Assembly (NCBI GenBank): GCA_039583875.1 | Contig: CM077150.1 | Location: forward strand, 52,448,451 to 52,512,450 | Reading direction: 5' to 3' | DNA: 64,000 nt | Origin: Platanthera guangdongensis | Taxonomy: Eukaryota > Streptophyta > Magnoliopsida > Asparagales > Orchidaceae | Part shown: positions 3,181 to 63,632 of the stretch, in pieces | Layout of the letters: every line of letters begins with the position of its first letter | Position numbering within the stretch: the stretch's first letter is position 1 | Program-made: the position numbers and the translations under genes | Notes under the pieces: generated by a model | What the model saw: only the letters and a program-made list of their open reading frames with translations | What the model was told of the DNA's origin: nothing | The model's database searches: none

Positions 3181-3540
3181 GTTCGACATTCGTCAAACTT
3201 AGCTCAACGATCGTCGATCGCTGATCGACGAACTCAGAGTTAATTCTCTGAGTTGAGCTCGCCGATATTCGAGCTCAGGTCGACGAAGTCTGGACTTCAA
3301 CTTCAACACATTCTTTCCAGATTACTTTTGTTGAACTCAGCTCGACGAAGATAGATTATTAGCTCGACGAACTTGGAGCTCAGAATTGGCAAGTTATTCA
3401 CAGAATGCAGTTTGTTGTGCTCAGGTCGACGAACTTGGATCTCAGCTCGACGAACAAGTTTTCTCAGGTCAACGAACAGGATTTCTCAGCTCGATGAACT
3501 TGGATCTCAGGTCGACGAAATCTATTATATGGTCGACGAT
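3181..3540 (+). repeat. TCGACGAA word array in U3 of element A LTR
   Basis: The words TCGACGAA and TTCGTCGA, often as CTCAG(C/G)TCGACGAAC, recur every ~15-50 bp. Several copies have decayed at CpG (TCGATGAA, TCAACGAA). The array lies upstream of the TATA-like box at 3818. Confidence 0.85.
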
Positions 3541-3817
3541 TTCTGTTGCAGTTCCAGACTTAGAATTTTCCTCATTTTCTGTCCTTATTCCATATTATTT
3601 AGCATTGATTTCCTGAAGTAATTATGCACATATTCTCTGAATATAGCCTTTATTGGCAGTATTAATTCTGGTCTTCATTAGGTTAATTACTTGCTTAATT
3701 AATTGGGATAGTTGGGGAAACACAATAAAAAAAATATTCTCCAGTCGATTTTCATTCTCCAGGCAGTCAACAATAAATGCAGAGTATTCAAAATTCAAAA
3801 GAGAATTCGACAGATAA

Positions 3818-3825
3818 TATAAAAG
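3818..3825 (+). promoter_or_regulatory. TATA box of element A LTR (candidate)
   Basis: TATAAAAG lies downstream of the word array, at the position matching TATAAAAG in the LTRs of B and TATAAAG in the 5' LTR of G. It is the probable U3/R promoter; the start site is not visible from sequence. Confidence 0.65.
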
Positions 3826-4050
3826 AGTTTTTCTTTTCAGAAGACAAGACAACAGGACTTAGAGCAATACAAAGAACACAGAAAGACATTCAAAAATTTT
3901 CTGTGCAGAAAACACTTTGTTTTCTCCTTGATCTTACTGAAGAAAAAGAACAACAACAATCACTATCAAGAGTCTTCTTCAACTTCAACTCTAGGAGCTT
4001 TAAAGGACAACAATCTCTAAATCAGTCAGAAGTTCCTGGATCATCTCAAG

Positions 4051-4518
4051 TCAAGGAAGAAGAACTACACCCTGAGCAAGGCTTCAAGTGATTTCTGAAC
4101 GAGCATTGAGAACAGCAATCCACTAAGTCTTCTCAGTTGTTTGAGAAAGAAAAGACACTATCAAATCTCTCTCCCCACTCCTATATAAAGGGTTTATTAA
4201 CTCCCTTCAAAAGTTTATTTGATTTTTTGGCACCTGATCAAAAGCTCAAATGGTTGTGAGATCTCCCTGGAAATAGATTTTGAAGGTCAAGGAAGAAGAC
4301 CTACACCCTGAGCAAGGCTTCAAGTGATTTCTGAAGGAGCCTTGACAACAGCAATCCACTAAGTCTTCTCATTTGTTTTAGAAAGAGAAGACACTATCAA
4401 ATCTCTCTCCCCACTACTGTATAAAGGGTTTATTAACTCCCTTCAAAGTTTATTTGGTTTTTGGGCACCTGATCAAAAGCTTAAAAGGTTGTGAGATCTC
4501 CCTGGAAATAGATCTTCT
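4051..4518 (+). repeat. ~236-bp tandem duplication inside element A LTR
   Basis: Units 4051-4286 and 4287-4518 both begin TCAAGGAAGAAGA. Both carry the 'CCTGAGCAAGGCTTCAAG' segment, a TATAAAGGG box (about 4183 and 4419) and GTGAGATCTCCCTGG. The two copies differ at scattered positions. LTRs B and G have a single copy of the corresponding stretch (ACAAAGGGTTATAAC in B). Confidence 0.85.
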
Positions 4519-4531
4519 GGTGGTAGTCACC

Positions 4532-4536
4532 TGATC
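4532..4536 (+). repeat. Target-site duplication of element B, left copy
   Basis: TGATC precedes TGTTGG of the 5' LTR and matches 17173-17177 exactly. Confidence 0.93.
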
Positions 4537-4724
4537 TGTTGGATCCCTAGTAAAATTTGGGCTAGGTTCACTAAGTTAGGAACATATGACCCATAATGTA
4601 TAGCCAGGGTTATGGTTGTGTCTTAGAGTCTAGGCCAAGTCCTTAGAATCAATATCACATGGACCAGCTATCAACAAGAATGTCAGAGACTCAAGAATTA
4701 GAGTTTTTCTAAAGAGTAAAATGA

Positions 4725-5290
4725 GTTCGATGTTCGTCGAACTCAGGTCGACGATAGTCGTGCTCAGCTCGACGATCTCAGAGTATATTCTCTGAGCTGA
4801 GCTCGACGAACTTGGTACTCAGGTCGACGAACTTTGGACACTATACTTCAACACTTCAAGATCAGAAAACATCTCTTTATTCTAAGTCCAGAGTCAGACT
4901 TTGGTCGACGAACTTGATTCTGAGCTCGACGAACTGTGACCACAATAGCTAGAGTTATCCAGCAGCAGTTAAGTGGTCCTCAGCTCGACGAAACCAATTC
5001 TTAGGTCGACGAATTATGGATACTTCACTTCAACACCTTCATCCAGAAGCATCTGAAATTATTCTAAGTCCAAAAATATTTTGCTGAACTTCAGTCGACA
5101 AAACCAGATATCAGCTCGACGAACTCCATACACAGAAAAGACAACGTTTCTAGAGAATATAGTTATGCTTTCTGCTCGACGATCTTGGAACTTAGCTCAA
5201 CGAACAGAAGTCATCTGTTCTACAAACTCAGCAACTCAGCTCGACAAACTGTGAACTCAGCTCGACGATTTCTGTTATCAGTTCGACGAA
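4725..5290 (+). repeat. TCGACGAA word array, U3 of element B 5' LTR
   Basis: There are roughly twenty copies or near copies of TCGACGAA/TTCGTCGA, mostly in the context CTCAGCTCGACGAAC or CTCAGGTCGACGAA, at irregular 15-60-bp spacing. The array ends ~250 bp before the TATA box. Confidence 0.9.
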
Positions 5291-5538
5291 TCCAGACTTA
5301 ATTATTTTCCATCCTTCTGTCCCCTTCTTACTGCAATAATTCTTGAGTAATTAATGCTCAAATATTCTCTATCATATAACCGTTAGATAGAGTATTGATC
5401 ATGGTCTTCTCCAAGATTATTGTCTGCCATTTTTCCATGTGACAGTTGGGGAAATAATTCAATGCTGTTTATTCTCAAGGCCATCAGCATTGATTGCAGA
5501 GGATTTCAAAATTTCAAAAGACCATTTTTGACAGGAAA

Positions 5539-5546
5539 TATAAAAG
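5539..5546 (+). promoter_or_regulatory. TATA box of element B 5' LTR (candidate)
   Basis: TATAAAAG is conserved at 16350 in the 3' LTR and at the equivalent places in LTRs A, D and G. It follows the word array and precedes the poly-C segment near the LTR end. Confidence 0.7.
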
Positions 5547-6372
5547 AGATTTTCTCTCTTCTCCCTGCAGATAGAAAGATAGACAGAACAAGATAAACAA
5601 TACATAGAGATGACAGATACAGAAAATAGTCAGTCTGAAACAAGAGATTCACTACTGTCTGTCAACACAGAATTCTGACACAACAAGAAGCCATATTCCT
5701 GAAGACCATCAGCTATCTAAAGAAGAAGAAGAACACCTAATCAAAATCAATAATCTTCTGTCTTCAACACTCCAGGATACTTCAAAGGACAACTATATCA
5801 CTATCTGTCAAAAAAGTTCCTGAACAACTGCTGATCAAGGCTATACTACTAAAGGCCTATCACCCTGCAACAAGGCTTCTTCTACCTTAACCATTCTATA
5901 TCTTAGGGCAAGCCTGTGCTAAAATCAAATATCAACCAGTCTTCTCAGTTGTATATTGGGAAAGAGAAGACACAATCATCCCTCACCCCCCCCCCCACTA
6001 TACAAAGGGTTATAACTCCCTTCAAAAGTTATTCCCGGTTGCAAGTCACCTAATCAAAAGACTTGAGGATTGATTTTTAAGCACCTGATCAAAAGATCAT
6101 TGGTGTCAGGCACCTGATCAAAAATCTGAGTGGATTCCTACCAGGGTGGTAGAAGAGTGGATGTACCCAAGTTTAGGGGAACCACTATAAATTCTTGTGT
6201 TGTCTGGATTGCTCTTTTCTGTTGTTTTTGTGATGTGGCTGTTTGTTAGGATTGTTGTTTTAATTTTGTTCCTGCACTAGATTAAATCAGAAGAAAATTT
6301 TATAAACACTGAATACTCTATTCACCCCCCCCCCCCTCTAGAGTATTCCTGATCCAACAGCTCACTTTCAAT

Positions 6373-6487: not shown

Positions 6488-8607
6488 ATGGCATGGAACA
6501 AAGACTATGCAAGCACCAGACCTCCAGTTTGCAACCTAAATATGTTTGCTATCTAGAAGGCAAGAATCAAATTATATATGAACTCTATTGATGAAGATAT
6601 CTACAATTCCATCTTGACAGGTCCTCCTCAAGCCACTGCTTCTACATCTACAGTAGCCTCAAGAACAAATGCAGTTCCACCACCTGAGTGGACTGAGGCT
6701 CAGAAGAAGGCCAAGGTTGCTGATGCCAAGGCAATGAACATACTGCCACAGACTATGTCAGATGATATCTTCCAAAAGGTTGCTGAATGTACTTCAGCCA
6801 AAGCCATCTGGGATTCCCTAAACCAAATGGTGGCTGGATCGGCATATGGAAGAATGGATAGGAGATCCAACCTCATATCCTTATATGAGAATTTCAAGAA
6901 AGAGGAAGCTGAGTCAGTAGCTGAAATGTATAATAGGTTAAGCTCAATCATTAATGAGCTAAAAACTTTGGATAAGGACATCACCCTCACTGAGGTGAAT
7001 GACAAGATCCTAATGTGCTTCCCAAGCTCATGGTATTCAAGAATCTGGTCTATCAAAGAATCCAGAAGCCTAAATGAGATATCCATAGAATCTCTATTAG
7101 GCAAACTTAAGTCCTATGAATAGCTGATTAAATCCAGGGAGGCAGCTGAGCAGAGAACACCCCCTCCAGCAAGAAAAGAGCATAGCATTACTTTCAAGGC
7201 AGCTGAAGATACAGAGACTCCCTCAACAAATGAAGAACTCATGAGTCTTTTTGCCAAAAGATTCTACAAGTTGGCAAGAAAAGATTTCAGGAGGAAGTCA
7301 TCCAGACAGGATGACAAACCAAGGTATAATAAAATGCCAACTAAAGAAGTTGTATGCTTTGGTTGCAAGAAAGCTGGACACTTCATATCTGAGTGTCCAG
7401 AGAATTAGAAGAAAGAAAAGAGAAGAGATAAAGATACCAGGAGACAACACAACAGCGGACCTTCTTCCAGCAAATACAAGAAGAAGGAGAAGGGTTTTGT
7501 GGCTGAAACCTGGAGTGAGACTGAAGAAGAATCAACATCTTCTAGCTCCAGTGAAGATAAGGAAGAGGCAAGGGCCAGGGAGGTTTGACTCATAGCAATT
7601 GATGCTTCCAGGAGCCATTCAGAAGAAGAGGACTCAGACAATGAAGCAGTTTCAGATTCTGAAGCTGACAAGGTATTGTCTTCTTTTGACTACAGTTCTG
7701 ATTCTTTTAAATTTGAATTTAGAACAATGTGTATAGGCTTAATAAACTCAGAAAAGGAGATTAAAACTCTTAGGGAAAAATTAGGAAACCTAGAGAATGT
7801 CAACTCTGAAAATAATAGGTTAAAAGATGAATTAAACTTAGCTAATGAACAAATAATAATGTTAAAGACTGAACTTTGTGAGGCTAAACAACTTGAGGAA
7901 ACTCTTAATGGAAGAAGCCTGAAGCTGATGGACATCACAAGCACTGTAAATGCCAGACTCAATGGCAAGCTAGGCTTGGATGCTTCATCAAGTTTCCCCC
8001 CATCCTCAACAAAAACATACTGATAACCCCAATCAAATTTGTTTCTGCTAAGGGGAAAGAGAAAATAAACCATAAACAAACAATAGAAAATGTTCCCAAA
8101 TCAATAGGTCTGAAAACCAAAAATCAGAAAACCTTAAGTAAAAACAAGGTTCAGTAGAATTCGTCGAACTTAGATCGACGAAATCCAGCCAGTTCGTCGA
8201 ACCCAGATAGACGAACTCTGAACGAAAACTATAGTTATAATTATTCATCTAACTACGATCGACGAACTCTGTATGGTTCGTCGAGTAGAGGTCGACGAAC
8301 GTGGGGCAAAGAAAATGAATATGTTCATTCTCAGGGCAGAGATCGACGATCTCAACCCAATTCGTCGAACTCTGGTCGACGAACTCACAGAAATTCGTCA
8401 AACTCAGAAAGACTTAACCAAAACTATAATCTTAACAGCAACTCTAATAATTCCAGGAAACCATTTAATCCTGTAGTTGATTGGGTTATACCACCTAGGA
8501 GATATCACCCTTTAGGATACAAATCCCAACTAGAATTTTCTGTTATTTCTAGCTTTTCATACCAGCAAAACAAAGGACCCAAGGTAACCTGGGTCAAGAA
8601 CAATTAA
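6488..8607 (+). pseudogene. gag of element B (capsid/nucleocapsid), broken
   Basis: The likely start is ATG at 6488 (MAWNKDYAS...), 117 bp after the LTR. The capsid-like segment runs about 6578-7123, with AKAIWDSLNQM and DRRSNLISLYENF typical of copia Gag (UBN2-type). A CCHC zinc knuckle (CFGCKKAGHFISEC) lies at 7355-7396. A coiled-coil-like Glu/Lys/Leu segment (about 7740-7900) follows. The C-terminal tail (8158-8607) carries NSSN-x-DRR repeats encoded by TCGACGAA words and ends in WVKNN-stop. Breaks: TAG at 6554 (Trp position), TAG at 7121, TAG at 7407, TGA at 7586, a frameshift near 8020 and TAG at 8155. The last 450 bp are open in a single frame. Confidence 0.85.
8158..8412 (+). repeat. 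Coding TCGACGAA/TTCGTCGA words in gag of element B
   Basis: The DNA words of the LTR array recur here inside an open frame. TTCGTCGAAC reads as S-S-N and (A/G)TCGACGAA as D/G-R-R, giving five or six NSSN-x-DRR(T/N) units. The frame stays open from 8158 to the gag stop at 8605. Confidence 0.85.
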
Positions 8608-11804: not shown

Positions 11805-12077
11805 ATAAATTTTCCAGAGTTCATCGAACGGAGCTCGACGAACTAGGGAAAGTTCGGGAGATATTCGTCAAACGAAGGTCGACGAACTCTCTGTATGTGA
11901 ATTTGTTTTCGTCAAACGGAGATCGACGAATCCACTTCAGAAAACTTTCGTCGAACGGAGCTCGACGAAATGTCTTCAACTCTTCCAACTGAGCACGACG
12001 AATTATCTCACTATCAATTATTTCGTCGATCTCAGGTCGAAGAATTTCTTATTTTTCGTGGAACGGAGTTTGTCGGT
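11805..12077 (+). repeat. TCGACGAA word array between pol and ORF3, element B
   Basis: Pairs of the form TTCGTCGAACGGAGCTCGACGAA recur about every 40-60 bp. They use the same word as the element's own LTR but a different linker (CGGAG). The stretch is non-coding and directly follows the pol stop. Confidence 0.88.
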
Positions 12078-15343: not shown

Positions 15344-17172
15344 TGTTGGATCCCTAGTAAGATTTGGGCTAGGTTCACTAAGTTAGGATCATATGACCCA
15401 CAATGTATAGTCAGGGTCATGGTTGTGTCCTAAAGTATAGGCCAAGTCCTTAGAATCAACATCACATGGACCAGCTATCAACAAGACTGTCAGAGACTCA
15501 AGACTTAGAGTTTTTCTAAAGACCAAGTAAAATGAGTTCGACGTTTGTCGAACTCAGGTCAACGATAGTCGTGCTCAGCTCGACGATCTCAGAGTAAATT
15601 CTCTGAGCTGAGCTCGACGAACTTGGTACTCAGGTCGATGAACTTTGGACACTATATTTCAACACTTCAAGATCAGAAAGCATCTCTTTATTCTAAGTCC
15701 AGAGTCAGACTTTGGTCGACGAACTTGATTCTCAGCTCGACGAACGCTGACCATAATAACTAGAGTTATCTAGTAGCAGTTAAGTGGTCCTCAGCTCAAT
15801 GAAACCAATTCTTAGGTCGATGAATTCTGGATACTTCACTTCAACACCTTCATCCAGAAGCATCTGAAATTATTCTAAGTCCAGAAATATTTTGCTAAAC
15901 TTCAGTCGACGAAACCTGATATCAGCTCGACGAACTCTATACATAAAAAAGGCAAAGTTTCTAAAGAATATAGTTCTGCTTTCTGCTCGACGATCTTGGA
16001 ACTCAGCTCGATGAACATAAGTCATCTGGTCGACGAACTCAGCAACTCAGCTCGAAGAACTGTGAACTAAGCTCGACAATTTCTGTTATCAGTTCGACGA
16101 ATCCAGACTTAGTTATTTTCCATCCTTCTGTCCTCTTCTTACTGCAATAATTCCTGAGTAATTAATGCTCAAATATTCTCTGGAATATAACCGTTAGATA
16201 GAGCATTGATCATGGTCTTCTCCAGGATTATTGCCTGTCATTTTTCCATGGGACAGTTGGGGAAATAATTCAATGTCGTTTATTCTCAAGTCCGTCAGCA
16301 TTAATTGCAGAGGATTTCAAAATTTCAAAAGACCATTTTTGACAGGAAATATAAAAGAGATTTTCTCTCTTCTTCCTACATATAGAAAGACAGACAGAAC
16401 AAGATAGACAATACGCAGAGATGACAGATACAGAAATAGTCAGTCTGAAATAAGAGATTCACTGTTGTCTATCAACACAGAATTCTGTCACAACAAGAAG
16501 CCATATTCCTGAAGATCATCAGCTATCTGAAGAAGAAGAACACCTAATCAAAATCAAGAATCTTCTGTCTTCAACACTCCAGAATACTTCAAAGGAAAAC
16601 TACATCACTATCTGTCAAAAAAGTTCCTGAACAACTGCTAATCAAGGATGTACTACTAAAGGCCTATCACCCTACAACAAGGCTTCTTCTACCCGAACCA
16701 TTCTATATCTCAGTGGGGAGCCTGTGCTAAAATCAAATATCCACCAGTTTTCTCAGTTGTATATTAAGAAAGAGAAGACACAATCATCCCTCACCCCCCC
16801 CCCACTGTACAAAGGGTTATAACTCCCTTCAAAAGTTATTCCTGGTTGCAAGTCATCTGATCAAAAGTCTTGAGGATTAGTTTTTGAGCACCTGATCAAA
16901 AGCTCATTGGTGTCAAGCACCTGATCAAAAATCTGAGTGGATTCCTACCAGGGTGGTAGAAGATTGGATGTACCCAAGTTTAGGGGAACCACTATAAATT
17001 CTTGTGTTGTCTGGATTGATCTTTTCTTTTGTTTTTGTGATATGGCTATTTGTTAGGATTGCTGTTTTAATTTTGTTCCTGCACTAGATTAAATCAGAAG
17101 AAAATTTTATAAACCCTGAATACTCTATTCACTCCCCCTCTAGAGTATTCTTGATCTAACAGCTCACTTTCA
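15344..17172 (+). repeat. 3' LTR of element B (1829 bp)
   Basis: It matches 4537-6370 end to end (TGTTGGATCC...CTTTCA) and is followed by TGATC. The word array lies at about 15535-16100 and TATAAAAG at 16350. Compared with the 5' LTR, several words have lost CpG (for example TCGATGAA) and the terminal poly-C run is shortened to five C. Confidence 0.95.
15535..16100 (+). repeat. TCGACGAA word array, U3 of element B 3' LTR
   Basis: This is the counterpart of 4725-5290. Its first unit, GAGTTCGACG..TGTCGAACTC, forms a hairpin-like inverted pair. Word positions are colinear with the 5' LTR. Confidence 0.88.
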
Positions 17173-17177: not shown

Positions 17178-17476
17178 AAAAACCTGCTAGTAGATTCCTA
17201 CCAGGGTGGTAGAAGAGTGGATATACCTAGGTTGGGGAATCACTATAAAATTTCTTATATTGTCTGGTTGCCCTTTTTCTTATTGTTCTTGTTGTGGATG
17301 TGATAGACTAGTTTGATGTACTGTGGTAGATTAGATTATCTTTTCTTTCTTTTACTATTACTGGTATCACCTATTTTATTTACTCTAATAATATTTTAAA
17401 ACAGCCAAAAGATTTAACATACTCTATTCACCCCCCCCCCCCCTCTAGAGTAATCAGATCTAACCCCCATCTTTCA
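17178..17476 (+). repeat. 3' LTR of element A, right part
   Basis: It resumes the LTR interrupted at 4536: 'AAAAACCTGCTAGTAGATTC', the 'GGTAGAAGAGTGGATATACC' segment, a long poly-C run (17432-17444), CTCTAGAG and the terminus CTTTCA. Gypsy integrase sequence follows at once, so element A ends here. Confidence 0.88.
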
Positions 17477-17478
17477 GG

Positions 17479-18572
17479 CCTGTAGGTAAATTGACACCGC
17501 TTGATATTCCCTGTTGGCAGTGGGAGAGTATTTCAATGGATTTCATCACCGGTCTACCAAAATCTACCCGTGGGCACGACTCTGTGTGGGTAATAGTCGA
17601 TAGATTAACTAAGTGTGCTCACGTTGTGCACTTTAAGATTGGGTATTCTATGAAGAAGATAGCTGAGCTATATCTTGAAGAGGTCATCAGATTACATGGA
17701 GTGCCTGTTAGCATTGTTTCATATCGAGACTCCCGATTTATATCTCGCTTTTGGAAGAGTTTACAGGAGGGGTTGGGTACCGATTTGAGGTATTCCACCT
17801 CCTATCATCTGCAGACAAATAGTCAAACAGAGCGAGTTAATCAGATAGTGGAAGATATGATCTGGGGTTAAATATTGGATCATGGAGGCGCTTGGGATGA
17901 GCGTCCCAGACTCATGGAATTTGCTTATAATAATAATTATCAAGAGAGTCTGCAAATGGCCCCATTTAATGCCTTGTATGGGAGGCGTTGTAGGACGCCT
18001 TTGTTTTGGGTTGAGGTTGGTGAGATACCACTGTTAGGTCCGGAAGCCCTTGAAGATATGAATTGTGCTATTACACATATTCGTGAGAAGCTCAGTGTAG
18101 CACAAGAGCGTTATTAAAAGTATGTTAATCGACGAATGGTCGATCTGGAGTTTGTCATTGGGGACTTGGTTTTCTAAAAGTCTCTCTAATGTCAGGTGTT
18201 AAGAGGTTTGGAAGGAACCACAAGTTAGACCCCCGGTATATGGGTCCTTTCCAGATTCTTGAGCGCATCAGAGTGTCTTCTTATAGGCTGGTATTGCCTA
18301 CTACCTTCCCTGGCATCCATGATGTGTTCCATGTGAGCCAGTTGTGGAAGTGTGTTTGTAGTGATTGTCAAGTCCTGGACTAGGTGCCCCAGATTCAGCG
18401 CAATCTTTCATATATTGAAGAACCCGTTCTTATTCTGGAATCTCAAGATCGAGTGTTGCGGAGAAAGACCATCCCCATGGTTAAAGTTCTCTGGCAAAAT
18501 CATGACGTCAAGAGCATGATGTGGGAATTGGAATCGACGATGAGAGAATCTCATCTGCATCTCTTCCCTTAG
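17479..18572 (+). pseudogene. Ty3/gypsy (chromovirus, Tekay/Del-like) integrase with chromodomain-like tail, element C
   Basis: The frame opens at the element A junction with PVGKLTPLDIPCWQWE and continues through SMDFITGLP (first catalytic Asp), an SYRDSRF motif where the family has SDRD (so the second catalytic Asp is Tyr, codon at ~17731), and TERVNQIVEDM (Glu retained). Then come AYNNNYQESL, the GPF/HDVFHVSQL C-terminal module (about 18189-18383) and a chromodomain-like end (VLRRKTIPMVKVLWQNH...WELES) to the TAG at 18570. Breaks: TAA at 17869, TAA at 18115, TAA at ~18174 and one frameshift near 18180. Protease and RT lie upstream of element A, outside the window or lost. Confidence 0.9.
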
Positions 18573-18678: not shown

Positions 18679-19137
18679 TGTAACGCCCCTGATTTTCTGG
18701 TCTTATTATTTGAATTGATGTCGTCATATTTATGATGTCGGGGCATTACCCCTTTTTGCATTTTGGTTGACGGCGCTGCACTGTTTGTGCGTTTGGCGTC
18801 CGTTAGGTTTGTTTGACCATATTTTGGGATTTTGATTAGATTGAATTATTTCCTTGGCCTAAAGGAATGAGTTTTGAGGTGTTGATCATGTCTAGTTTTA
18901 TTGCGACCCGAGCATTTTGGAGTCTCGGCATGTGTTTGGATCCTTGTGATGATTTCTGCTTGTGTGAGCATTTGTTGGTATGGTCTCAAGAATACTGCGT
19001 CGGATTCTAGGGTTGCCTCCCTTGCTAAATTCTTAGAGTAACATTTTATCCCAGAATTTAAGACAAACCGAAAGTTTCGAATCTATCCTGGAGTTCTCAA
19101 GAAATATCTTCTTGTACTTGAGTTGCCTATCTTCAGG

Positions 19138-19580
19138 ACTCGAGTAATGTGTGCCTGTTACTCGAGAATTATCTCCTTATTCTAGAGAAGTACCTCTCGT
19201 ACTCGAGTAATGCCCTGCCTGAACTCACGAAATTTTCTCAATAATCTCGAGAAGTGCTTGCCTTCTAGTACTCGAGTAACTGGCTAGTACTCGAGTACTC
19301 TCCTTTTGCACTCGAGTCGTGCCATAGCACTCGAGTAATTCTCCCTGCTAGTACTCGAGTAATTATTCCCTTAGTACTCGAGTAATCGCCTTAGCACTAG
19401 AGTAATCCTCTTGCAGTACTCGAGTAGTCGTCCCTTAGTACTCAAGTAATTCCCTTGTAGTACTCGAGTAATCGCCTTAGTACTCGAGTAATCCTCTTAC
19501 AGTACTCGAGTAGTCGTCCCTTAGTACTCGAGTAATCCCCTTCCAATACTCGAGTAATCGTCCCTTAGTACTCGAGTAAC
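19138..19580 (+). repeat. ACTCGAGTA word array in U3 of gypsy element C
   Basis: The perfect palindrome TACTCGAGTA or close variants recur every ~18-30 bp, typically as 'CCCTTAGTACTCGAGTAATC'. Copies near 19460-19580 form higher-order ~50-bp repeats. The same word fills the LTRs of copia element H. Confidence 0.92.
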
Positions 19581-19656
19581 CCATTCCTTCTGTCTCGGAA
19601 AAACCGGTTTAGCCGAACCCGGTCTATTTTGTTGTTTATCCTGTTATCACCCTTAG

Positions 19657-19664
19657 TATAAATA
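19657..19664 (+). promoter_or_regulatory. TATA box of gypsy element C LTR (candidate)
   Basis: TATAAATA lies 77 bp after the last ACTCGAGTA word. Confidence 0.7.
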
Positions 19665-21138: not shown

Positions 21139-21146
21139 CTTTTATA
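21139..21146 (-). promoter_or_regulatory. TATA box of element D LTR (candidate)
   Basis: The minus-strand TATAAAAG is colinear with 5539 and 16350 in element B. Confidence 0.65.
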
Positions 21147-21400
21147 TTTTCTATGAAATTTTCCTTTGAACTTTTGAATTCCTTCCTACATTGATTACTG
21201 ACGGCCTTGAGAATGTTTGCATTAATTGATTTCCCCAACTGTCCCATTGAAAAACGGCAGGTAATAATCCTTATGAATGTCATAATCAATGTTGCTTCTA
21301 ATGGTAATATTCAGAGAATATTGAGCATTGATTATTCAGGAATTACTGCAATAAAATAAGGACAGAAGAAAGGAAAAGTCCATGTCTGGAACTGCACAAA

Positions 21401-30623: not shown

Positions 30624-30626
30624 ATT

Positions 30627-45427: not shown

Positions 45428-48400
45428 GTATGTCCAAAGGCCACCAAAACTCTAATCTGGTATTTGGACAGTGGATGCTCTCGGCATATGACCGGGACAA
45501 GAATCCTAATCCAGAACTTTACTCCAGTCGTGAACGGACCGAAGGTCATCTTTGGAGGTTCAGACCGTGGAATCACTAAAGGCTACGGTATTATTACGAA
45601 CGGTAATGCATCATTCTCAGATGTGGCTTACGTTGAAGGTTTGGAACATAACCTTATAAGCATAAGCCAACTCTGTGATAATGGATACATAGTTGAGTTT
45701 CACTCTTATAAGTGCTTGAAAAATATGTTGACAATATGGAAACAATTCTATCCGGCACTCGAAGTAGAAACATATTTTGCTTGAATTTCATTTGTGTAGA
45801 TTCTTCGACACCAGTGTGCTTTTTAGCAAAAGATAGTGCGTCGCTTGGTGACCAATGACACAAGAGACTAGCACATATTAATTTCAAAACTATTAATAAA
45901 TTATTTTCAATGAACTTAGTACGTGATGCCCCAAATGTCAAGTACGTCAAAAATAGACCTTGTCATGCATGTGTAAAAGGCAAGCAAATAAGAGCTACCT
46001 TTAAAAAGGTTATTGGCAAAAATTCTAATAGATGTCTTCATCAACTGCATATGGACTTATTTGGTCCACTGCAAATTAGAAGTTTGGGAGATAAGGATTA
46101 TGTGTTAGTAATTGTTGATGATTACTCGCACTTTTCATGGGTGTTCTTTCTGAAACACAAATCAGATACCTTCGACATCTTTACTAATTTTGTCAGGCAA
46201 GTTCAAAACGAGTACAACTGCTCCATAGTCAAAATCAGAAGTGACAATGGAACAGAGTTCAAGTATAGGGCCATGAAAGAATTTTATGAAAGCCTAGGAA
46301 TCTTTCATGAGTTTTCCTCTCCTCGTACCCCTCAACAGAACGGAGTGGCCGAGAGAAGGAATAGAACACTCATAGAGGCCTGCAGGACCATGTTGAGTGA
46401 TGCTTCACTTCCGGAGTACTTTTGGGCTGAAGCCATCAACACTGCATGTCACGTGCAAAATCGAGCCCTAATAAACAAAAACCACGATAAGACACCTTAC
46501 AAACTTCTGAAGGGAAGAAAACCGACAGTCTCATATTTTAGAATATTTTGCTGTAAATGTTTCGTGCTCAACAATGGCAAGTATCATAATACTAAGTTTA
46601 GCGAAAAGAGTTTTGAAGGTATTTTTATAGGTTATAGTAGCCATAGTAAGGCATACAGGATCTTTAATAGAAAAACTCGGGTCGTGGAAGAATCGATACA
46701 TGTTGTATTTGATGAGACGAGTTTGCTGCAAAGCAACTCTTCTAATGTGCTTGTTGAAGATGCAGGTGCAAAGCTGAAAGAAATTAGCTTGGATGGACCG
46801 TCCGAAGATAAAGGTGAAATGTTCATCAAGATCACCACTCCAACCCCTATTGGAGAGGCTGATGATCATGATGAAGAAGTCATCCAAGATGAAGAAGTCA
46901 CTCCAGTGATAGAAGATAATCCAGATGCAAATACTCTAGAGCTCAGACATCTGAAGGATCACCCCATGGACCAGATCATAGGAGATCCCCAGGATGGTGT
47001 TAAAACTCGTAGAGGTTCAACTAATGAGAATCTATATTTAAGTTTTCTCTCACGGGTTGAATCAAAGAAGTTTGAGGAAGCAAACTCAGACACATCGTGG
47101 ATAATGTCGATGGAAGAAGAACTAAACCAGTTCAAGCGTTGCAAAGTATGGAAGCTTGTTCCAAGACCCAAAGGTAAGAACGTCATTGGGACAAAATGGG
47201 TCTATAGGAACAAGATGGACGAGGATGGAACGATAGTAAAGAACAAGGCCAGACTTGTCACAAAAGGCTATCGTCAAGAAGAAGGAATCGACTTCGACCA
47301 GACGTACGCTCCAATGGCAAGGCTGGAGGCAACAAGGTTATTCCTAGCATATGCTGCACTCAAAGGCTTCACTATCTACCAGATGGATGTGAAGTCTGCC
47401 TTCCTTAATGGTGACATAAAGGAAGAGGTGTATGTGTAACAACCTCCAGGTTTCGTTGATTCTAACTTTCCTGATTATGTTCATTTACTGCATAAAGCAT
47501 TATATGGCCTGAAATAAGCTCCTCGAGCTTGGTATGAGATGTTGTCCACCTTTCTACTTGAGAACAAGTTCACAAGAGAAAAGATAGACAAGACATTATT
47601 TCTTAGGGAGATTAAAGGCAAGATTTTGCTAGTGCAAATCTATGTCGACGACATTATTTTTGGCTCTACTGATGACAACCTCTGCAAGAAGTTTTCAAAA
47701 CTTATGCAAGGGAAGTTTGAAATGAGCGGTATGGGCGAGCTGAAATATTTCTTAGGGCTTCAAGTGAAATAGTCTGAAGATGGAATTTTCATCTCACAGA
47801 CCAAGTTCACCAAAGAGCTGATTAAGAAATTCGGAATGGAGAACGCAACCTCGATGAGGACTCCAATGGGTTCAACTATATCTCTGGACAAGGATGAAAA
47901 AGGGAAACCTTTTGATGAAACCAAGTACAGAATCATAATTGGATCCTTGCTCTACCTTACGGCAAGTAGACCTGACATAATGTTCTCAACATGTATCTGT
48001 GCTAGATTTCAGGTGAACTCTAAGGAATCTCACTACGCTGCTGCAAAGTGGATTTTGAGATACCTTAAAGGTATACCAAATCTTGGCTTATGGTACCCAA
48101 GAAGTAATGACAGCGAACCAATAGGTTTTTCAGATGTAGATTTTGCAGGGAGCAAAGATGACAGGAAAAGCACTTCCGGGACATATCAATTCTTTGGAAG
48201 AAGACTTATCTCCTGGAGTAGCAAGAAGCAAAACTATGTGGCAATTTCAACGGCTGAGTCAGAGTACATCTCTACAGGCAGTTGCTGTGTACAGTTACTC
48301 TGGATAAAGAATCAGTTTGAGGGCTATAATATGAAGTTTGAAAAGATTCCATTATTTTGCGACTCTTCCAGCGCAATAGCAATAGCCAACAACCTAGTCT

Positions 48401-48664: not shown

Positions 48665-48910
48665 TGGCTCGAGTAAGATATAGCCCACTCGAGTAAGAAT
48701 ATGACCTACTCGAGTAGTAGAATAACATACTCGAGTAGTCTACTTGACCTACTCGAGTAGCAGACTGACATACTCGAGTAGTCAACTTAACATACTCGAG
48801 TACCTCACTGACCTACTCGAGTACTTCCATACATCTACTCGAGTACTTCTGTATTCCTACTCGAATAATTCCAGACTTATCTACTCGAGAAATTTCCTCA
48901 CTCGTGTACA
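48665..48910 (+). repeat. ACTCGAGTA word array between pol and ORF3, element H
   Basis: About ten CTCGAGTA words at ~22-bp spacing (for example CATACTCGAGTAGTC, GACCTACTCGAGTA) directly follow the pol end. They use H's own LTR word at the place where B, D and G carry TCGACGAA. Confidence 0.92.
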
Positions 48911-49181
48911 TGCCGAGTCGTTTGTTTTTCAAATTTTCTTATGCACAAACAAAGGCTTATGCCGCCTCTTCTTTGGTTTATTTCATTCATTTTCATCTAA
49001 TTAGACCAAAAATTAGGGTTATATAAATAAGAAAATCCGGAAATGTCCTACACGAAATCATTTCCGTCTTCTCGAGTACCCGACTGCTTCTTCGCCTTCC
49101 TCAGTCAGTTGCAAAGCCGTGAAATTTCCTTCACCCCGTCGAAGCTTTCTAGGGTTTATGCATCTCCAAGATTTATAAATC

Positions 49182-51542
49182 ATGGCCGCCTCCTCTAAAA
49201 TCGGTGTGGGTTCGGAATTAGTCGCCGCCGGGATTGCAGAACTATCTGACGACTTCCACAATCTCATGATTTTGCTCAATACCGCCGGATTAACCTTCAT
49301 TCTCCAAGAACAATGTCGAATCCTCTTCCCCGATGTTGCAGAATTTTTTAGGAATGTCAAGGTGAAGCGCCACGAGACAGTTCTAAAATCCAAAGTCAGA
49401 GGCATAAAGATCAAACTTACTTCAACCTCTGTTTCTCAACTTCTTCGGCTGCCAGTTTTAGATACAGATGATTTTCTGGGTGATGAAGAGTATGCCAGAA
49501 CTTGCTTATTTTGTGGACTTTCTGCTGATGCAAAATACATTAGAAGGGCTGACATGAATTCAGAAGGTGAACTGCTAGTTGATATTATTGGAAAAATTCT
49601 TCTGTGTAAGACAAACTCCATAAGAGATATCCCTCTGTATTTCTTTGAAATGATGCAAGCCATAGTCTGTAGAAAAGCATTTCAGTTTGGCTTGCTTATC
49701 CTGAACAAAATAAAGGAGAGCATTAAATCCCCCAACTATGCAAGGATCATTTCACTACTCCTTCATGAGTTAAACCCAGAAACCTTCACCCTCTATAAAG
49801 GAAGTATCCTTCATCATATGAAGAAGGTCTCCATCTCCTCTATTCAAAGATGGGAGCTCAAGTTGCAGAATCCTTCTCATGCTACTAAGATTATTGAAGT
49901 TTTAGACACAGAGGACAGGACCCCATCTCCCTCTCCATCTCAGGTCCCCATCTCCTCTGGTGCACCAAATGAGGGGGAGCCTGCTCCTACTACTTCAGGC
50001 AGGCTGCTAACTCCTCCAGCTCCTACTCCTCCACCTGTTACCCCAGAAGATATCCCCTCAGATCAACAACTTCAATATTCACTCATCTACACAAATGCTA
50101 TCATCAATGAGATGATAGCATAATTGACAGCAGATTTACCTCCTCCTCCTCCTCTATCTCCAAAAGCTCCATCCACTGATATACCCAAAGACCACACTCT
50201 AGTGCAATCTCCAGCACAGTCTCCAGCATAATCTCCAGCAAGATCTCCAGCTAAATCTCCTGATACTCACTAAAAGCAAACAGAAACCATCTTCATTTCA
50301 AATGAGACATCACCTGAGCCAGTTGAAGCTCCTCTAAGGAACTTAAATTTCTCCATCCCCACAATCACTGATGAAAGGGATGCCTTGCTAACAACTACAA
50401 GAGCTCAGAGCTCTGTTACCCTTACATAAATAGAACCTTGGGTAGCTCCTCCTCTTCCTTCTATTCCATCTACTTCTGCTCCTCCTGCTGCAACTACTAC
50501 TCCCTCCACAGATTTGCTGCCACAGATTGTCCTTCTCCTTCAAGAGCAGAAAACATACTTTGATACTTGTATTAAGATTGTCATAGATAAGGTCACTGCT
50601 CTAGAAACTGAGATGAGCAGAGGATTTGCTGAGATTCAACATAATACTGATCAGCTCAAACATCTGTTCCAAATTGGTGGCAAAGAATTAGACCACACCA
50701 TTACTAGTGTTGGTCAAGTCATGGAGCAAGGTCTGACTCTTGCTAATAATCAGATGGAATTGGACAAACGAGATGAAGCTACAAAAATGAAAATCTATGA
50801 AGAGGTTGGCACTTTCAAAGAAGATGTCATCTCTAAGCTATCTGTTGAAGTCAGAAAGGGGGAGAAATTGGTGAAATAGTATTTAGAACAATCAGATGTT
50901 GTCATGTAAAAGTTTTGGAAAGCCAAAGTAAAAGAGATCCATGATGATGTCCTAGCACAAATTCAGAGTGTCAAATTCTACACCTATGACACTACTGTAT
51001 GGATGCACAACCAGATCCTTCCTAAATTTGCTACAAATCCTAATATCATTCCTCATCACCTGAACCATCTAGCTGCTGCTGATGCTCCTGCTCCTCCTCT
51101 GCAACCCATATTCTCTCATAGGCCTGGTGACTCTGTTGCTCCTCCTGATTCCTACACTCAGGATTGGGAAGATGATCCTGCAGATATATTCCTTCATGCT
51201 CCTCCTGAGATCCAAACTTCCAAGAAGAAAAGAAAGTATGGTGAAGGTCCTTCTGCTAGCAAGTCCATTCATGTCTCTGATCCTGAGAAAAGAAAAGCTC
51301 CAGAATTTGTTGAGATATGATCTCCCACTTCTAAGTCCCTCATTTTGGACACTCTCAAATTAGTTATGGACTACCATGAGAGCAGTAATATTCACTACAG
51401 TTCCCAGGAATGGGAGTTATATGAGAAATCAATGACCAAGAGAAGATTATATGACAGAGAATATGGAAGAAACAATCCTGCTGCTCCTCCAAGACCTCCC
51501 AAGTATTATCTAAAGCCTTACAGCTATCAAAGAAGACAATAG
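49182..51542 (+). pseudogene. ORF3 of element H, single frame with several stops, divergent from B/D/G
   Basis: ATG at 49182 (MAASSKIGVGSELVAAG) opens a 313-codon piece. Its globular domain (FRNVKVKRHETVLKSKVRGIKI, TSTSVSQLLRLP, GELLVDIIGKILL, FFEMMQAIVCRKAFQFG) shares layout with the B/D/G N-terminal domain. A Pro/Ser-rich linker with SPA repeats (50130-50300), an amphipathic, probably coiled-coil middle (50514-50880) and a basic tail (TSKKKRKYGEG, ~51210) follow. All pieces are in one frame, stopped at 50121, ~50228, ~50271, ~50427, 50877, ~50907 and 51318, several at plausible Gln codons. The final TAG at 51540 could itself be a lost Gln. The N-terminal domain resembles Pfam-type 'putative plant transposon protein' (from memory). 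Confidence 0.82.
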
Positions 51543-57041: not shown

Positions 57042-58992
57042 TGTTGGATCCCTAGTTGGATTTGGGCTAGGTTCACTAAACTAGGATGTTTGACCCAACA
57101 TGTATAGCTAGGGTCATGTATGAGTCCTAGAGTCTAGGCTATGCCCTTAGAGTCAACACTGCATGGACTAGCCATCAACAGAATGCAAAAGACTCAAGAC
57201 TTAGAGAAATTTCAAAGACTCAAAAAATGAGTTCAATGTTCGTCGAACTCAGGTCGACGATAGTCGTGCTCAGCTCAACGAACTCAGAGAAAATTCTCTG
57301 AGCTGAGCTCGATAAACTTGGTTCTCAGGTCGATGATCAATGGACACTATACTTCCAACATTCCAAGTCCAGAATTCTTCTCACTGAACTCCAGTCGACA
57401 AAGTTAGAATATCAGCTCGACGAATCTGACTATTAGGTCGACGATTTCTGGATAATCTACTTCAACATAATAAGACCAAAAACACTCAAGTATTCTAAGT
57501 CCAGAATCATTCTTTAGTCGATGAATTCACCTTCTCATCTCGACGAACTTAGACCACATTCTTGGCAAGATTTATCAAGTAGTAGTTAGAAGTTCTCAGC
57601 TCGACGAAGCTAGTTCTCAGGTCGACGAACCCAGTTATCAGGTAGACAATTTCTAGACACGTTACTTCAACATTCTCAAGTCCAAGAAACATGGAATTAT
57701 GTTTTTCAGTCGATGAAGTTAGAATCTCAACTCGACGATCTTGGTGCACAGAATTGGCAAGGTTCTAGAGAAAGTAGTTATTTGTCCTCAGATCGACGAT
57801 CTCAGGTCGACGAACAACTATTATCTGGTCGACGAACTTGACTTCTCAGCTCGACGAACTCTGGACCCAGGTCGACGAATTCTGTTCTCTGTTCAACGAT
57901 TTCTGTTATGTTCTGTTCTAAACATGGACTTTTCCTCCCCCTGTCCCTTAATTTATTGCAATAATTCCTGAGTAGTTAATGCTAAATATTCTTTGAATAT
58001 TACCATTAGACGAATCATTGATTATGGACTTCATCAGGATTATTGCTTGCCATTTTTCAATGGGACAGTTGGGGAAATCAATCAATGCAAATATTCTCCA
58101 GGTCGTCGGCATTGAATGAAGGAATTCAAAATTCACATGAAAGATTTCATGGAAAATATAAAAAGGATTTTTACTCTTTCTTTCATAGTTACAACGAATA
58201 GAGTTTCTATCCTTCCTTCTTGTCTAAACACAGTGAACAGGATACCCAGGGCAATAGCACAGCAGAGAAATCAGAAGCCTTAGACCAGAGAAAGAACAGC
58301 AAGCTGAAGAAGAAGAACATCAATCAAAAATCAAGAGTCTTCGTCCTTTTTCATCTCAGGATTCTTAAGAGGACAACAAATATTCTATCTATCAAAGAGG
58401 TTCCTGGATACCATATGGTCAAGGCTGAAATATTGAAGGCCTACTCACCCTGCAGCAAGGCTCAAATCTTCCTGAGTTCAATATCTCAGGGGGAGCTTTT
58501 GCTAACATCATATATCCACTAACGTCTTCTCAATTGTATTTTGAGAAAGAGAAGACATAATCACTCTCTCTCTCCCCCACTGTAAAAAGGTTTCTTTAAC
58601 TCCCTTCAAAAGTTATTCTTGGTTGCAAGTCTTCTGATCAAAAAACTTGGGTTGGTTTTTGAGCACCTGATCAAAAGCTCATTGGTGGCAGTCACCTGAT
58701 CAAAAACCTGAGTGGATTCCTACAAGGGTTGTAGAAGAGTGGATGTACCCAGGTTGGGGAACCACTATAAAATTCTTGTGTTGTCTGGTTGCACCTTTGC
58801 TTTTGTTCTTGCTGTGGCTGTGCTAGCTAGGTTACTATGTTTGTGAAATTTGGTTTTGTTGTGCATGTGATAAGTGCTAGATTAATTTATCTTAGGTCTG
58901 CTTTTATTTACAGCAAAAGTTTTAAAGTTTTCAAGATACTTTATTCACCCCCCCCCCCCTCTAGAGTATTTCGGATCTAACCCTTACTTTCT
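57042..58992 (+). repeat. 3' LTR of element G (1951 bp)
   Basis: It starts TGTTGGATCCCTAG. The end reads TTACTTTCT where the 5' LTR has TTACTTTCA, so the last base is mutated. It is followed by AGGGA and F gag sequence. The word array lies at 57235-57905, a TATA-like TATAAAAAG at 58157, and a poly-C run at about 58948-58959. Confidence 0.93.
57235..57905 (+). repeat. TCGACGAA word array, U3 of element G 3' LTR
   Basis: It is colinear with 35881-36545. Differing decay states (TCGATGAT, TCAACGAA, TCGACAAA) show independent CpG loss in the two LTRs. Confidence 0.88.
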
Positions 58993-62538: not shown

Positions 62539-62605
62539 TTTATATATATATATACACACACACACGCACACACGTATGTATGTATCTATATATATATATA
62601 TAGAG
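62539..62605. repeat. TA/CA microsatellite
   Basis: TATATATA, then CACACACA, GTATGTATGT and a second TATATATA run. It is low-complexity DNA beside the MITE. Confidence 0.9.
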
Positions 62606-62613
62606 GGTTACTC

Positions 62614-62970
62614 TAGTGCGGGCGTACGGGCGTACGTGCAAGGGTCAAGGAGGCTTCAAATCGAAAAGTGATCAACATGAAAATTGTAGATCTCGGCGAG
62701 ACGAACAACTTTCATGTTGATCACTTTTTGATTTGGAGCCATCTTGGATCTCGATTTGGGCCCCGAAAACTGGGGCGGCGGAACTGCTACAGTAAAGCGT
62801 CCGCCGACCCAGTTTTCGGGGCCCAAATCCAGGTCCAAGATGCTCCAAATCGAAAAGTGATCAACATGAAAGTTGTTCGCCTCGCCGAGATCTACAACTT
62901 TCATGTTGATCACTTTTCGATTTAAAGCCATCTTGACCCCCAAAAAGACCTGCCCGTACGCCCGCACCTA
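62614..62970. mobile_element. Foldback MITE with terminal and internal inverted repeats
   Basis: The termini TAGTGCGGGCGTACGGGC and, inverted, TAGGTGCGGGCGTACGGGC flank a ~350-bp unit. Inside, the segment 'AATCGAAAAGTGATCAACAT' and its inverse occur on each side in two nested pairs (62653-62736 and 62850-62925). The centre has CCGAAAACTGGG / CCCAGTTTTCGG arms around 'GCTACAGTAAAGCGTCCGCC'. No transposase is present. TA at both edges could be a target-site duplication; the superfamily is not assigned. Confidence 0.82.
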
Positions 62971-62988
62971 ATCTTGCCCGCATTTGAG

Positions 62989-63016
62989 ATATATCCATAT
63001 ATATATATATATATAT
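62989..63016. repeat. AT microsatellite
   Basis: A run of TATATATA follows the MITE. Confidence 0.85.
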
Positions 63017-63082
63017 TATAAAGAAGTAGTTTTGAATTCTATAATCAGATCATGATCGATCACGACCGTTGAATCTAAATCA

Positions 63083-63172
63083 AACATTTGATCGCAGCCG
63101 TTCATCATATCAACGAATCAGGACCGAACATTTGATCGCAGCCGTTCATCACATCAACGAATCAGGACCGTT
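63083..63172. repeat. 45-bp tandem duplication
   Basis: Units 63083-63127 and 63128-63172 read AACATTTGATCGCAGCCG … AATCAGGACCG and differ at one position (CATATC versus CACATC). Confidence 0.9.
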
Positions 63173-63298
63173 CATATTTTTTCATAGGACTCCTAAACCT
63201 ATATAGAGCCTCTAAAATTTAGGGCACCCTTCATCAGGTCAGTCCAAAATTACAGACCCGCCGGCCCGCCCACTGTCCAAAAATGGAGGCCCGCCGGC
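63125..63298. repeat. ~175-bp direct repeat, left copy
   Basis: It matches 63826-64000 at an offset of ~702 bp, with few differences (for example ATAGAGCC versus ATAGGGCC). The right copy is cut by the window edge. It could be a long tandem or satellite-like unit, or flanks of an inserted palindrome block. Confidence 0.88.
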
Positions 63299-63419
63299 CC
63301 GCCCAACCATATACACAACCCACCCGCCCAGCGCCCACCAGCCTAAACCAGCCCGTTGTATCACATCTGCACTATTCAAGATCAAAACACCTTATATACA
63401 CATGCAGCAACACTAAATT

Positions 63420-63449
63420 TAGCGGTGTGGGACTAAATCCCACACCGCC
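63420..63449. repeat. 30-bp palindrome
   Basis: Arms GCGGTGTGGGA and TCCCACACCGC flank CTAAA. It lies directly before the palindrome array. Confidence 0.9.
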
Positions 63450-63456
63450 AAATAAG

Positions 63457-63632
63457 GTAGGCGGGATTAATCCCGCCAAGCTTAGGCGGGATTAATCCCG
63501 CCTAAACAGGCGGGATTTAATCTCGCCTATACTTAGGCGGGATTTAATCCCGCCTGTTTAGGCGGGATTAATCCCGCCTAAGTATAGGCGGGATTTAATC
63601 CCGCCTAAACAGGCGAGATTAAATCCCGCCTG
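63457..63632. repeat. Nested palindrome array, unit GGCGGGATTAATCCCGCC
   Basis: Seven head-to-head units of the 18-bp palindrome GGCGGGATTAATCCCGCC, or a one-base-longer form with TTTAAT/ATTAAA, are joined by linkers TAAACA, TATACTTA and their inverses. The linkers are also arranged symmetrically, giving a ~60-bp higher-order palindrome centred near 63560. Confidence 0.93.

What the first reader, a model, noticed from the sequence alone, without database searches (positions are those of the whole stretch)
3181..63632. Unrelated LTR families each carry an array of short palindromic CpG words in U3
Seen directly: copia A/B/D/G LTRs (TCGACGAA/TTCGTCGA), copia H (TACTCGAGTA), gypsy C (TACTCGAGTA), gypsy E (CACGGGCGTG-type plus TCGACGAA) and element J (11-bp arms GCGCACGACCA) all hold such arrays. 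In A, B, C, D, G, H and J the array lies just upstream of the candidate TATA box. Superfamilies that split long ago share the architecture and in two cases the word itself. Common descent does not explain this simply. Candidates are convergent selection for a host DNA-binding factor, a nucleosome or methylation signal, or exchange of short modules between elements. I know of no named system for this.
Basis: partly seen in the sequence, partly recalled or inferred. Interest (0 to 1): 0.82.

Follow-up and report, generated by a model that had tools for sequence, protein, structure and literature searches.

The report
Shared palindrome arrays in retrotransposon promoters
In this plant genome, two long-separated groups of jumping genes carry arrays of the very same short mirror-image DNA words upstream of their start signals, which suggests that both answer to the same DNA-binding proteins.

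Summary
The arrays are real and far beyond chance. The copia ones are a known thing: the palindromic repeated motifs of Sirevirus LTRs (Bousios 2010, PMC2829016). Families A, B, C, D and G fit the Sirevirus plan; B, C, D and G have a further array before the envelope-like ORF. TCGACGAA is an oriented word, not a palindrome.

The surprising claim survives and grows. TACTCGAGTA, GTGTCGACAC and, less surely on the copia side, TTCTCGAGAA occur as arrays in both Sirevirus copia and gypsy LTRs. Of 14 H-like gypsy U3s picked blind to their words, 12 carry an array. Genome-wide, closely spaced pairs number 125,190, 968,176 and 15,724, against 0, 1 and 0 for reversed controls. Between copia families, words are more conserved than spacers.

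Best reading: arrays of dimer-binding sites for host proteins, used by two superfamilies. No binding protein is identified, and old sequence exchange is not excluded. In the held library I found no report of this sharing.

The parts
2991..4536 (+). Element A (copia, Sirevirus type), 3' LTR first part with TCGACGAA array at about 3211-3540; LTR end lies at 17173-17476 beyond inserted element D
   Evidence: PPT AGGGGGAGATTG at 2981; words; TGATC on both sides of D
4537..6370 (+). Element D (copia, Sirevirus type) 5' LTR, TCGACGAA array about 4733-5290
   Evidence: LTR pair 92.8% identical; TSD TGATC; words
8158..8410 (+). TTCGTCGA-N7-TCGACGAA dyads inside an open frame between gag and pol of D, encoding SSNxDRR-like repeats
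11819..12040 (+). Array between pol and ENV-like region of D
15344..17172 (+). Element D 3' LTR, TCGACGAA array about 15580-16101
17476..18566 (+). Integrase of element H, Ty3/gypsy
   Evidence: tblastn 50.6% over 235 aa to the L009 gypsy integrase, itself Pfam-typed
18679..20289 (+). Element H 3' LTR (cut at 20289), starts TGTAACGCCCC; TACTCGAGTA array 19138-19579, TATA at about 19657
20290..22107 (-). Element G (copia, Sirevirus type) LTR, TCGACGAA array about 21403-21921
25460..25604 (-). Array between pol and ENV-like region of G
28321..30624 (+). Element E (gypsy) LTR; mixed array 28387-28942 of ACACGnnCGTGT, GTGTCGACAC and TCGACGAA
   Evidence: Retrotrans_gag downstream; same LTR type next to a gypsy integrase in L009
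32860..33195 (-). Element J array, GCGCACGACC arms; TATA on the minus strand at about 32815-32827; element type not settled
35694..37642 (+). Element B (copia, Sirevirus type) 5' LTR, TCGACGAA array 35885-36540
40929..41080 (+). Array of four TTCGTCGA-N7-TCGACGAA type dyads (one with a changed arm) after pol of B; C is inserted at its end
41082..43024 (+). Element C (copia, Sirevirus type) 5' LTR, TACTCGAGTA array 41404-42160, TATA at about 42284
   Evidence: 20 exact words, shuffled mean 0.003; flank GAAAT on both sides
45859..47436 (+). Copia integrase and start of RT of element C
   Evidence: Pfam gag_pre-integrs, rve, SH3_retrovirus, RVT_2 in this order
48668..48889 (+). TACTCGAGTA array of C between pol and the ENV-like ORF, 7 exact words at about 21-bp steps
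49179..50120 (+). ENV-like open frame of C, Transposase_32 (PF20167) similarity below Pfam's cut-off
   Evidence: E 7.3e-06, 26.4 bits against a cut-off of 45; homologue P0001
51780..53732 (+). Element C 3' LTR, TACTCGAGTA array 52106-52861
   Evidence: 95.7% to the 5' LTR
57042..58991 (+). Element B 3' LTR, TCGACGAA array about 57239-57880
   Evidence: 93.0% to the 5' LTR

Best explanation
The arrays are promoter-proximal banks of binding sites for dimeric, sequence-specific host DNA-binding proteins. Each word is two half-sites around a central CG, often TCGA, and neighbouring words most often sit about two helical turns apart. Sirevirus copia elements carry them in U3 and again before the ENV-like ORF (the known Sirevirus repeated motif). 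Ty3/gypsy elements of the same genome carry the same words in their own U3. Binding would drive LTR transcription or spare it from silencing. Because two superfamilies share exact words, and both appear to have moved between TACTCGAGTA and TTCTCGAGAA by the same symmetric change, the recognising protein most likely lies outside the elements: host factors of one family with different half-site preferences. Shown here: the arrays, their places, the sharing, the word conservation, the spacing. Inferred: protein binding, dimer, host origin, effect on transcription.
For: Same words in copia and gypsy LTRs: TACTCGAGTA in copia C and L023 and in gypsy H; GTGTCGACAC in copia L012, L021, L019 and L025 and in gypsy L020 and L009; TTCTCGAGAA in gypsy L033, L041, L043, L045, L046 and at C1:19984807, and in a copia-C-like LTR at C1:1790411. 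The gypsy arrays lie in gypsy LTR sequence: on both sides of the C1:19984807 array the flanks match the H LTR at 79-80%. Pair counts 125,190, 968,176 and 15,724 against 0, 1 and 0 reversed. Words more conserved than spacers between copia families in 15 of 15 one-sided comparisons. Paired symmetric words far outnumber the paired asymmetric intermediate TACTCGAGAA, 1,721 + 1,665. Neighbour distances of 19-22 bp in 122 of 223 steps of 11 arrays.
Against: No protein is known to bind these words, and no binding, expression or methylation data were available. Within single gypsy arrays, symmetry exceeds the independence of the two flanks at p<0.05 in only 4 of 12. All 24 gypsy-copia CTCGAG array comparisons score above a spacer-shuffled null (z 3.0-14.3), and 5 of 6 GTGTCGACAC ones have z above 0, up to 6.1, which leaves room for old exchange, although that null also destroys decayed words and flanks. 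TCGACGAA and the words of L016 and L030 are not the same simple 10-bp palindromes. The 14 gypsy loci all share H's LTR start, so they sample one branch of gypsy. Array-guided alignment inflates word identity. The L020 array is a regular 34/35-bp tandem repeat.
Confidence: 0.52

Rival explanations
1. One reading: the Sirevirus ENV-like protein binds the words before its own gene and in the LTR, as VANC proteins bind motif arrays of VANDAL transposons, and gypsy elements have adopted the words to profit from it.
For: An array sits before the ENV-like region in B, C, D, G and L019. ENV-like proteins diverge far more than pol: about 22-27% against 45-66% in the tblastn and alignment pieces compared across word groups, while families with the same word (L012, L019, L025) are 72-84% alike. 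VANC targets also evolve synchronously as motif arrays (PMC5735166, passages).
Against: H's LTR starts about 110 bp after its integrase, so H has no ORF after pol. No DUF1985, the VANC domain, nor any known DNA-binding domain among Pfam matches up to E 10. The structure model was too poor to judge (mean pLDDT 38). Four of the 13 RM-bearing Sireviruses of PMC2829016 lack ENV but keep LTR motifs.
Confidence: 0.16
2. Exchange: arrays or pieces of them passed between copia and gypsy elements by template switching or recombination, then spacers drifted.
For: Array-to-array alignment scores exceed the shuffled null in all 24 CTCGAG gypsy-copia comparisons. The elements are nested in each other in this window.
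Against: In L035 against two copia arrays, identity outside the words plus 6 bp is 56 of 97 and 53 of 87, about what a gapped local alignment of unrelated sequence gives (that yardstick is my judgement). Within one superfamily the scores are mostly higher (z 6.8-34.5). Exchange alone does not explain why words are kept.
Confidence: 0.15
3. RNA-level role: words in the 3' U3 and before ENV lie in the genomic RNA and pair with each other, as hairpins that are processed to small RNAs or as packaging or translation signals.
For: Palindromes can pair in RNA; in maize, Sirevirus palindrome regions are small-RNA hotspots (PMC5311732 and PMC10760457, passages).
Against: Small-RNA targeting would not keep the words in active lineages. 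In A, B and D the LTR word is mostly in one orientation, so copies cannot pair over their whole length. Words are conserved in sequence, not by compensating change. No Rfam family matched.
Confidence: 0.1
4. Neutral concerted evolution: tandem duplication and conversion of arbitrary short units, with no function.
For: Some arrays (E, L020) are regular tandem repeats.
Against: Spacers diverge while words do not. Six of 32 word clusters in 24 blind regions have an exact palindrome among their most frequent 8-mers, against 1 in 256 for a random 8-mer (crude null). The three main words recur in two superfamilies. After insertion array CpGs decay (21 of 103), not clearly differently from CpGs outside (14 of 44, p=0.14), so the words are kept by selection between active copies rather than by low mutation.
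Confidence: 0.05

Closest known systems
Sirevirus repeated motifs (RM boxes), Bousios et al. 2010, PMC2829016 (Results section read); maize follow-up Bousios et al. 2016 not held, seen only through passages of PMC5311732 and PMC10760457
   Same: High-copy palindromic words in the upper half of Sirevirus LTRs before TATA, with CpG concentration, and extra copies before ENV.
   Different: Words here lack the CGG-CCG core (as does Tnd-1 there); one family uses a non-palindromic word and a gag array; and the same words occur in gypsy LTRs, whereas the paper calls the motif Sirevirus-specific after comparing copia elements only.
VANC anti-silencing proteins and their motif arrays in Arabidopsis VANDAL transposons, PMC5735166 and PMC10398659 (passages)
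   Same: Arrays of short motifs in non-coding parts of a transposon, differing between related families and evolving in step.
   Different: DNA transposons, not LTR elements; motifs not described as palindromic in the passages found; the VANC domain DUF1985 was not detected in the ENV-like proteins here.
Repeated U3 boxes of Tnt1 and similar LTR enhancers (background and discussion passages of PMC2829016; otherwise recalled)
   Same: Repeated, partly symmetric boxes in the LTR thought to bind host factors.
   Different: Two or three boxes are described there, against roughly 5-26 here; no exact sharing across superfamilies is recalled.

Membership tests
Sirevirus with RM boxes (elements A, B, C, D, G) | Copia pol order, integrase before RT | tested here: met
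   Shown by Pfam for C; D and G have integrase and/or RVT_2 pieces and B, D, G match copia pol by tblastn; A's pol lies outside the window
Sirevirus with RM boxes (elements A, B, C, D, G) | PPT AGGGGGAG followed by AT/TG at the 3' LTR | tested here: met
   Exact in A (2981), D (15334), C (51770), B (57032); G with one mismatch (22118)
Sirevirus with RM boxes (elements A, B, C, D, G) | 5' LTR/PBS junction CA/ATTGG-TATCAGAGC and C-rich integrase signal | tested here: met
   Junction exact in C, one mismatch in B and D; 5' junctions of A and G not in the window; CCCCCCTCTAG exact in LTRs of all five
Sirevirus with RM boxes (elements A, B, C, D, G) | At least eight copies of a palindromic motif per element, mostly in the upper half of the LTR | tested here: inconclusive
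   Met in C (26 CTCGAG cores in the 5' LTR); in A, B, D and G the word is repeated 5-10 times per LTR but is not a palindrome
Sirevirus with RM boxes (elements A, B, C, D, G) | Further copies just upstream of ENV | tested here: met
   B, C, D, G; A not in the window
Sirevirus with RM boxes (elements A, B, C, D, G) | CGG-CCG core of the motif (12 of 13 elements in the paper) | tested here: not met
   Words are TACTCGAGTA and TCGACGAA
Sirevirus with RM boxes (elements A, B, C, D, G) | Position in the Sirevirus clade of the RT tree | not tested
   No reference sequences of known lineages were fetched
Sirevirus (element H and gypsy loci L009, L020, L033-L046) | Copia pol and Sirevirus junctions | tested here: not met
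   H has a gypsy integrase and LTR start TGTAACGCCCC; L009 and L020 have gypsy gag, RT or integrase; L033-L046 were chosen by H's PPT/LTR start and their coding parts were not read
VANC-type anti-silencing system | Element-encoded DUF1985 protein | tested here: not met
   Not among Pfam matches up to E 10 of 5 ENV-like proteins
VANC-type anti-silencing system | Protein binds the motif array and removes DNA methylation | not testable with these tools
   Needs binding and methylation assays

The most novel reading that the evidence does not exclude
This genome runs a common cis-regulatory code for retrotransposons: a small set of CG-centred palindromes, read by a family of dimeric DNA-binding proteins, is used in U3 arrays by both copia and gypsy elements, and both superfamilies switch words in parallel (TACTCGAGTA and TTCTCGAGAA) as the readers change.
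Probability: 0.4. Interest if true: 0.88.

Novelty: new variant of a known kind. Interest (0 to 1): 0.72.

Why it matters
Which proteins control plant retrotransposon promoters is known in few cases (recalled). Exact words shared by two superfamilies, repeated in hundreds of thousands of closely spaced pairs, are a concrete bait for finding those proteins, and a case in which convergence on a host factor, sequence exchange and hijacking of another element's factor can be told apart. It would also mean that such arrays are not a Sirevirus peculiarity.

Tried and rejected

Led nowhere: Rfam (0 matches at gathering score); text search for the words (1,323 papers hold at least one of three terms, the 15 listed are unrelated; none holds both terms); structure of the ENV-like protein (mean pLDDT 38 with 3 sequences), so no fold search was made; relatives of the ENV-like protein (1, 7, 6 of these 7 from Platanthera zijinensis); the type of element J; a genome count for TCGACGAA pairs (not completed); single-array symmetry (4 of 12 at p<0.05). 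Two papers not held; two calls failed on term length.


Full report
What was checked. The window lies on contig C4 of an unnamed 4.25-Gb genome. It is probably an orchid near Platanthera: the only hit of the first ENV search and 6 of 7 hits of the second come from P. zijinensis, and the two published Platanthera assemblies have 4.19-4.20 Gb on 21 chromosomes (passages of PMC9023349). It matches neither exactly, since contig C7 has 308.1 Mb. The species is inference.

Anatomy. Element C has LTRs 41082-43024 and 51780-53732 with GAAAT on both flanks, and its ORF 45859-47436 carries integrase before RT, so it is copia. A, B, D and G are related families, typed as copia by pol matches in B, D and G and by LTR similarity in A. 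They carry the Sirevirus signs as far as the window shows them: AGGGGGAG-AT/TG (exact in A, B, C, D; one mismatch in G), the CTTTCA/ATTGGTATCAG junction (B, C, D; not in the window for A and G) and the C-rich integrase signal, as described in PMC2829016 (whole Results section read). H is different: a gypsy integrase at 17476-18566 is followed by an LTR starting TGTAACGCCCC at 18679, with the array at 19138-19579 and a TATA box at about 19657. E is gypsy by its gag and by its likeness to the LTR beside a gypsy integrase in L009. J remains untyped. D sits in A's LTR (TGATC on both sides) and C sits in B; A abuts H's integrase, G abuts H's LTR and E abuts G's pol, presumably as further nested insertions.

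The arrays. C's 5' U3 has 20 exact TACTCGAGTA (shuffled mean 0.003) and H has 12 (0.007); B, D and A have 10, 9 and 7 TCGACGAA in either orientation (0.03-0.09). In the window the words keep to U3 and to arrays inside the elements. CpG in the B and D LTRs is 0-2 per 100 bp outside the array and mostly 2-10 within it. The array between pol and the ENV-like region (C 48668-48889; D 11819-12040; G 25460-25604; B 40929-41080, where C is inserted at its end) is the arrangement that Bousios et al. reported for ENV-bearing Sireviruses, so for the copia families this is a known system. Further details not described in the section read are an array inside an open frame between gag and pol of D, with a like array in L018, and a 7-bp-spaced inverted arrangement of TCGACGAA there and before ENV. 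The words lack the usual CGG-CCG core.

Genome-wide. Pairs of TACTCGAGTA 8-14 bp apart number 125,190, against 0 for the pattern read backwards; GTGTCGACAC 968,176 against 1; TTCTCGAGAA 15,724 against 0. The reversed control is itself a palindrome of the same composition, with GC in place of CG at the centre. Twenty-four 10-kb regions at round positions chosen without looking hold 32 clusters of an 8-mer repeated at least 6 times in 700 bp; 24 of 32 top words contain CG (background 25%), 12 of 32 contain TCGA (2.4%), and 17 of 24 regions hold a CG cluster (backgrounds from the first 20 regions). Three Markov controls of the first 20 regions gave 0 clusters. Not all of these clusters were tied to an LTR family. 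The Sirevirus PPT/LTR start AGGGGGAGATTGTTGG N1-2 TC occurs 5,595 + 5,380 times, reversed control 0.

Sharing between superfamilies. GTGTCGACAC arrays occur in copia (L012 LTR with Sirevirus PPT and TATA; L021; L019 before ENV; the LTR across L020/L025 next to an ENV-like region) and in gypsy (L020 LTR 5519-8333, between gypsy gag and gypsy integrase, 25 words; L009 3' LTR, 6 words). TACTCGAGTA occurs in copia C, L023 and the C-like LTR L001, and in gypsy H. To test gypsy without looking at words I searched the PPT/LTR start of H: 76 + 65 = 141 places, reversed control 0. Of the 100 listed I took every sixth, the first 14 of the 17 so chosen, and read 1.1 kb of each. Twelve of 14 hold an 8-mer at least 6 times: ACTCGAGT type in L035, L036, L037, L039, L040 and L042; TTCTCGAGAA type in L033, L041, L043, L045 and L046; ACACGnnCGTGT in L038; L034 and L044 fall short. 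L039 has the 8-bp palindrome but no full TACTCGAGTA, and L046 mixes TTCTCGAGAA with TACTCGAGAA. These loci all share H's LTR start, so they sample one branch of gypsy. A TTCTCGAGAA locus at C1:1790411 has U5 matches to copia C (82 bp at 79%, 32 bp at 94%) and GGTCCACGTG before TATA, as C has, so the third word appears to be shared too; this copia call is the weakest of the three. At C1:19984807 a TTCTCGAGAA array is flanked on both sides by H-like gypsy LTR. A crude null (256 CG-centred 10-bp palindromes, 6 copia and 4 gypsy words) gives 3e-5 for three shared and 0.003 for two; not all the words counted are such palindromes, and TACTCGAGTA and TTCTCGAGAA are not independent, so these are only a guide.

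Selection or drift. Words exact in one LTR were read in another family's LTR: C group 96-99% against 55-57% in spacers and 73-76% in the rest; GTGTCGACAC group 97-100% against 72-75% and 77-79%; B/D/A/G group 89-97% against 69-81% and 61-82%, with words falling in gaps set aside. The aligner helps words find words, so the word figures are upper bounds. After insertion the words are not clearly protected: CpG decay between the two LTRs of B, C and D is 21 of 103 in arrays and 14 of 44 outside (p=0.14). An earlier count of all changes in the same three pairs gave words 13 of 378, array spacers 88 of 1,559 and the rest 203 of 3,767, with D's words above its spacers. So the words seem to be kept while elements are active and then to decay much as other CpGs do. 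Paired symmetric words far outnumber the paired asymmetric intermediate TACTCGAGAA (1,721 + 1,665), as expected of dimer sites; within single arrays the symmetry test is below 0.05 in only 4 of 12. Neighbour distances peak at 19-22 bp, 122 of 223 in 11 arrays.

Mechanism. The place before TATA, strict words with loose spacers, near two-turn spacing and symmetric word change point to dimeric DNA-binding proteins. Sharing by copia and gypsy points to a reader outside both, hence a host factor. Spacers of gypsy L035 and two copia arrays match at 56 of 97 and 53 of 87 positions outside the words, which argues against recent block exchange; but whole-array scores exceed a spacer-shuffled null in all 24 CTCGAG comparisons (z 3.0-14.3), so old exchange remains possible.

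Novelty. The copia side is known. In the held PMC library I found no paper on palindromic U3 arrays in plant gypsy elements or on words shared across superfamilies (searches; listings, with passages read from PMC2829016, PMC5311732, PMC10760457 and PMC5738225; of PMC3599292 the first of two parts was read). Bousios 2016 was not held, and subscription journals are mostly missing, so this is no proof of novelty. PMC10760457 reports the maize Sirevirus palindrome also as the most abundant motif in Helitrons, a hint that sharing across kinds of transposon exists elsewhere.

Noticed in passing
63458-63631: Array of AGGCGGGATTAATCCCGCCT-type palindromes at about 25-bp steps, outside any LTR recognised here, between two 99%-identical direct repeats (63124-63298 and 63826-64000).
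   Followed up: no
8158-8410 and L018:210-405: The same word pair as in the array before ENV lies inside an open frame between gag and pol of D and encodes SSNxDRR-like repeats; in L018 the array is there but its frames hold stops.
   Followed up: partly
37642-41076: Element B starts matching D's interior at D 8551, so it seems to lack about 2 kb of gag region that D has.
   Followed up: no
28387-28942: E's LTR mixes three words (ACACGnnCGTGT, GTGTCGACAC, TCGACGAA) in one roughly 100-bp tandem unit.
   Followed up: partly
L016:789-1039 and L030:3072-3298: Two further words (GGCGAGAATCAC and GGTCTCGCC) beside Sirevirus-like LTR ends.
   Followed up: partly
L007:3350-3632, L013:3046-3292, L015:191-581, L024:4331-4927: Clusters of CpG-bearing words in elements that I did not type.
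   Followed up: no
L044:685-878: A gypsy U3 with three copies each of GCACGACC and CGTGCGCA, pieces of the J word; J might be a gypsy LTR.
   Followed up: no
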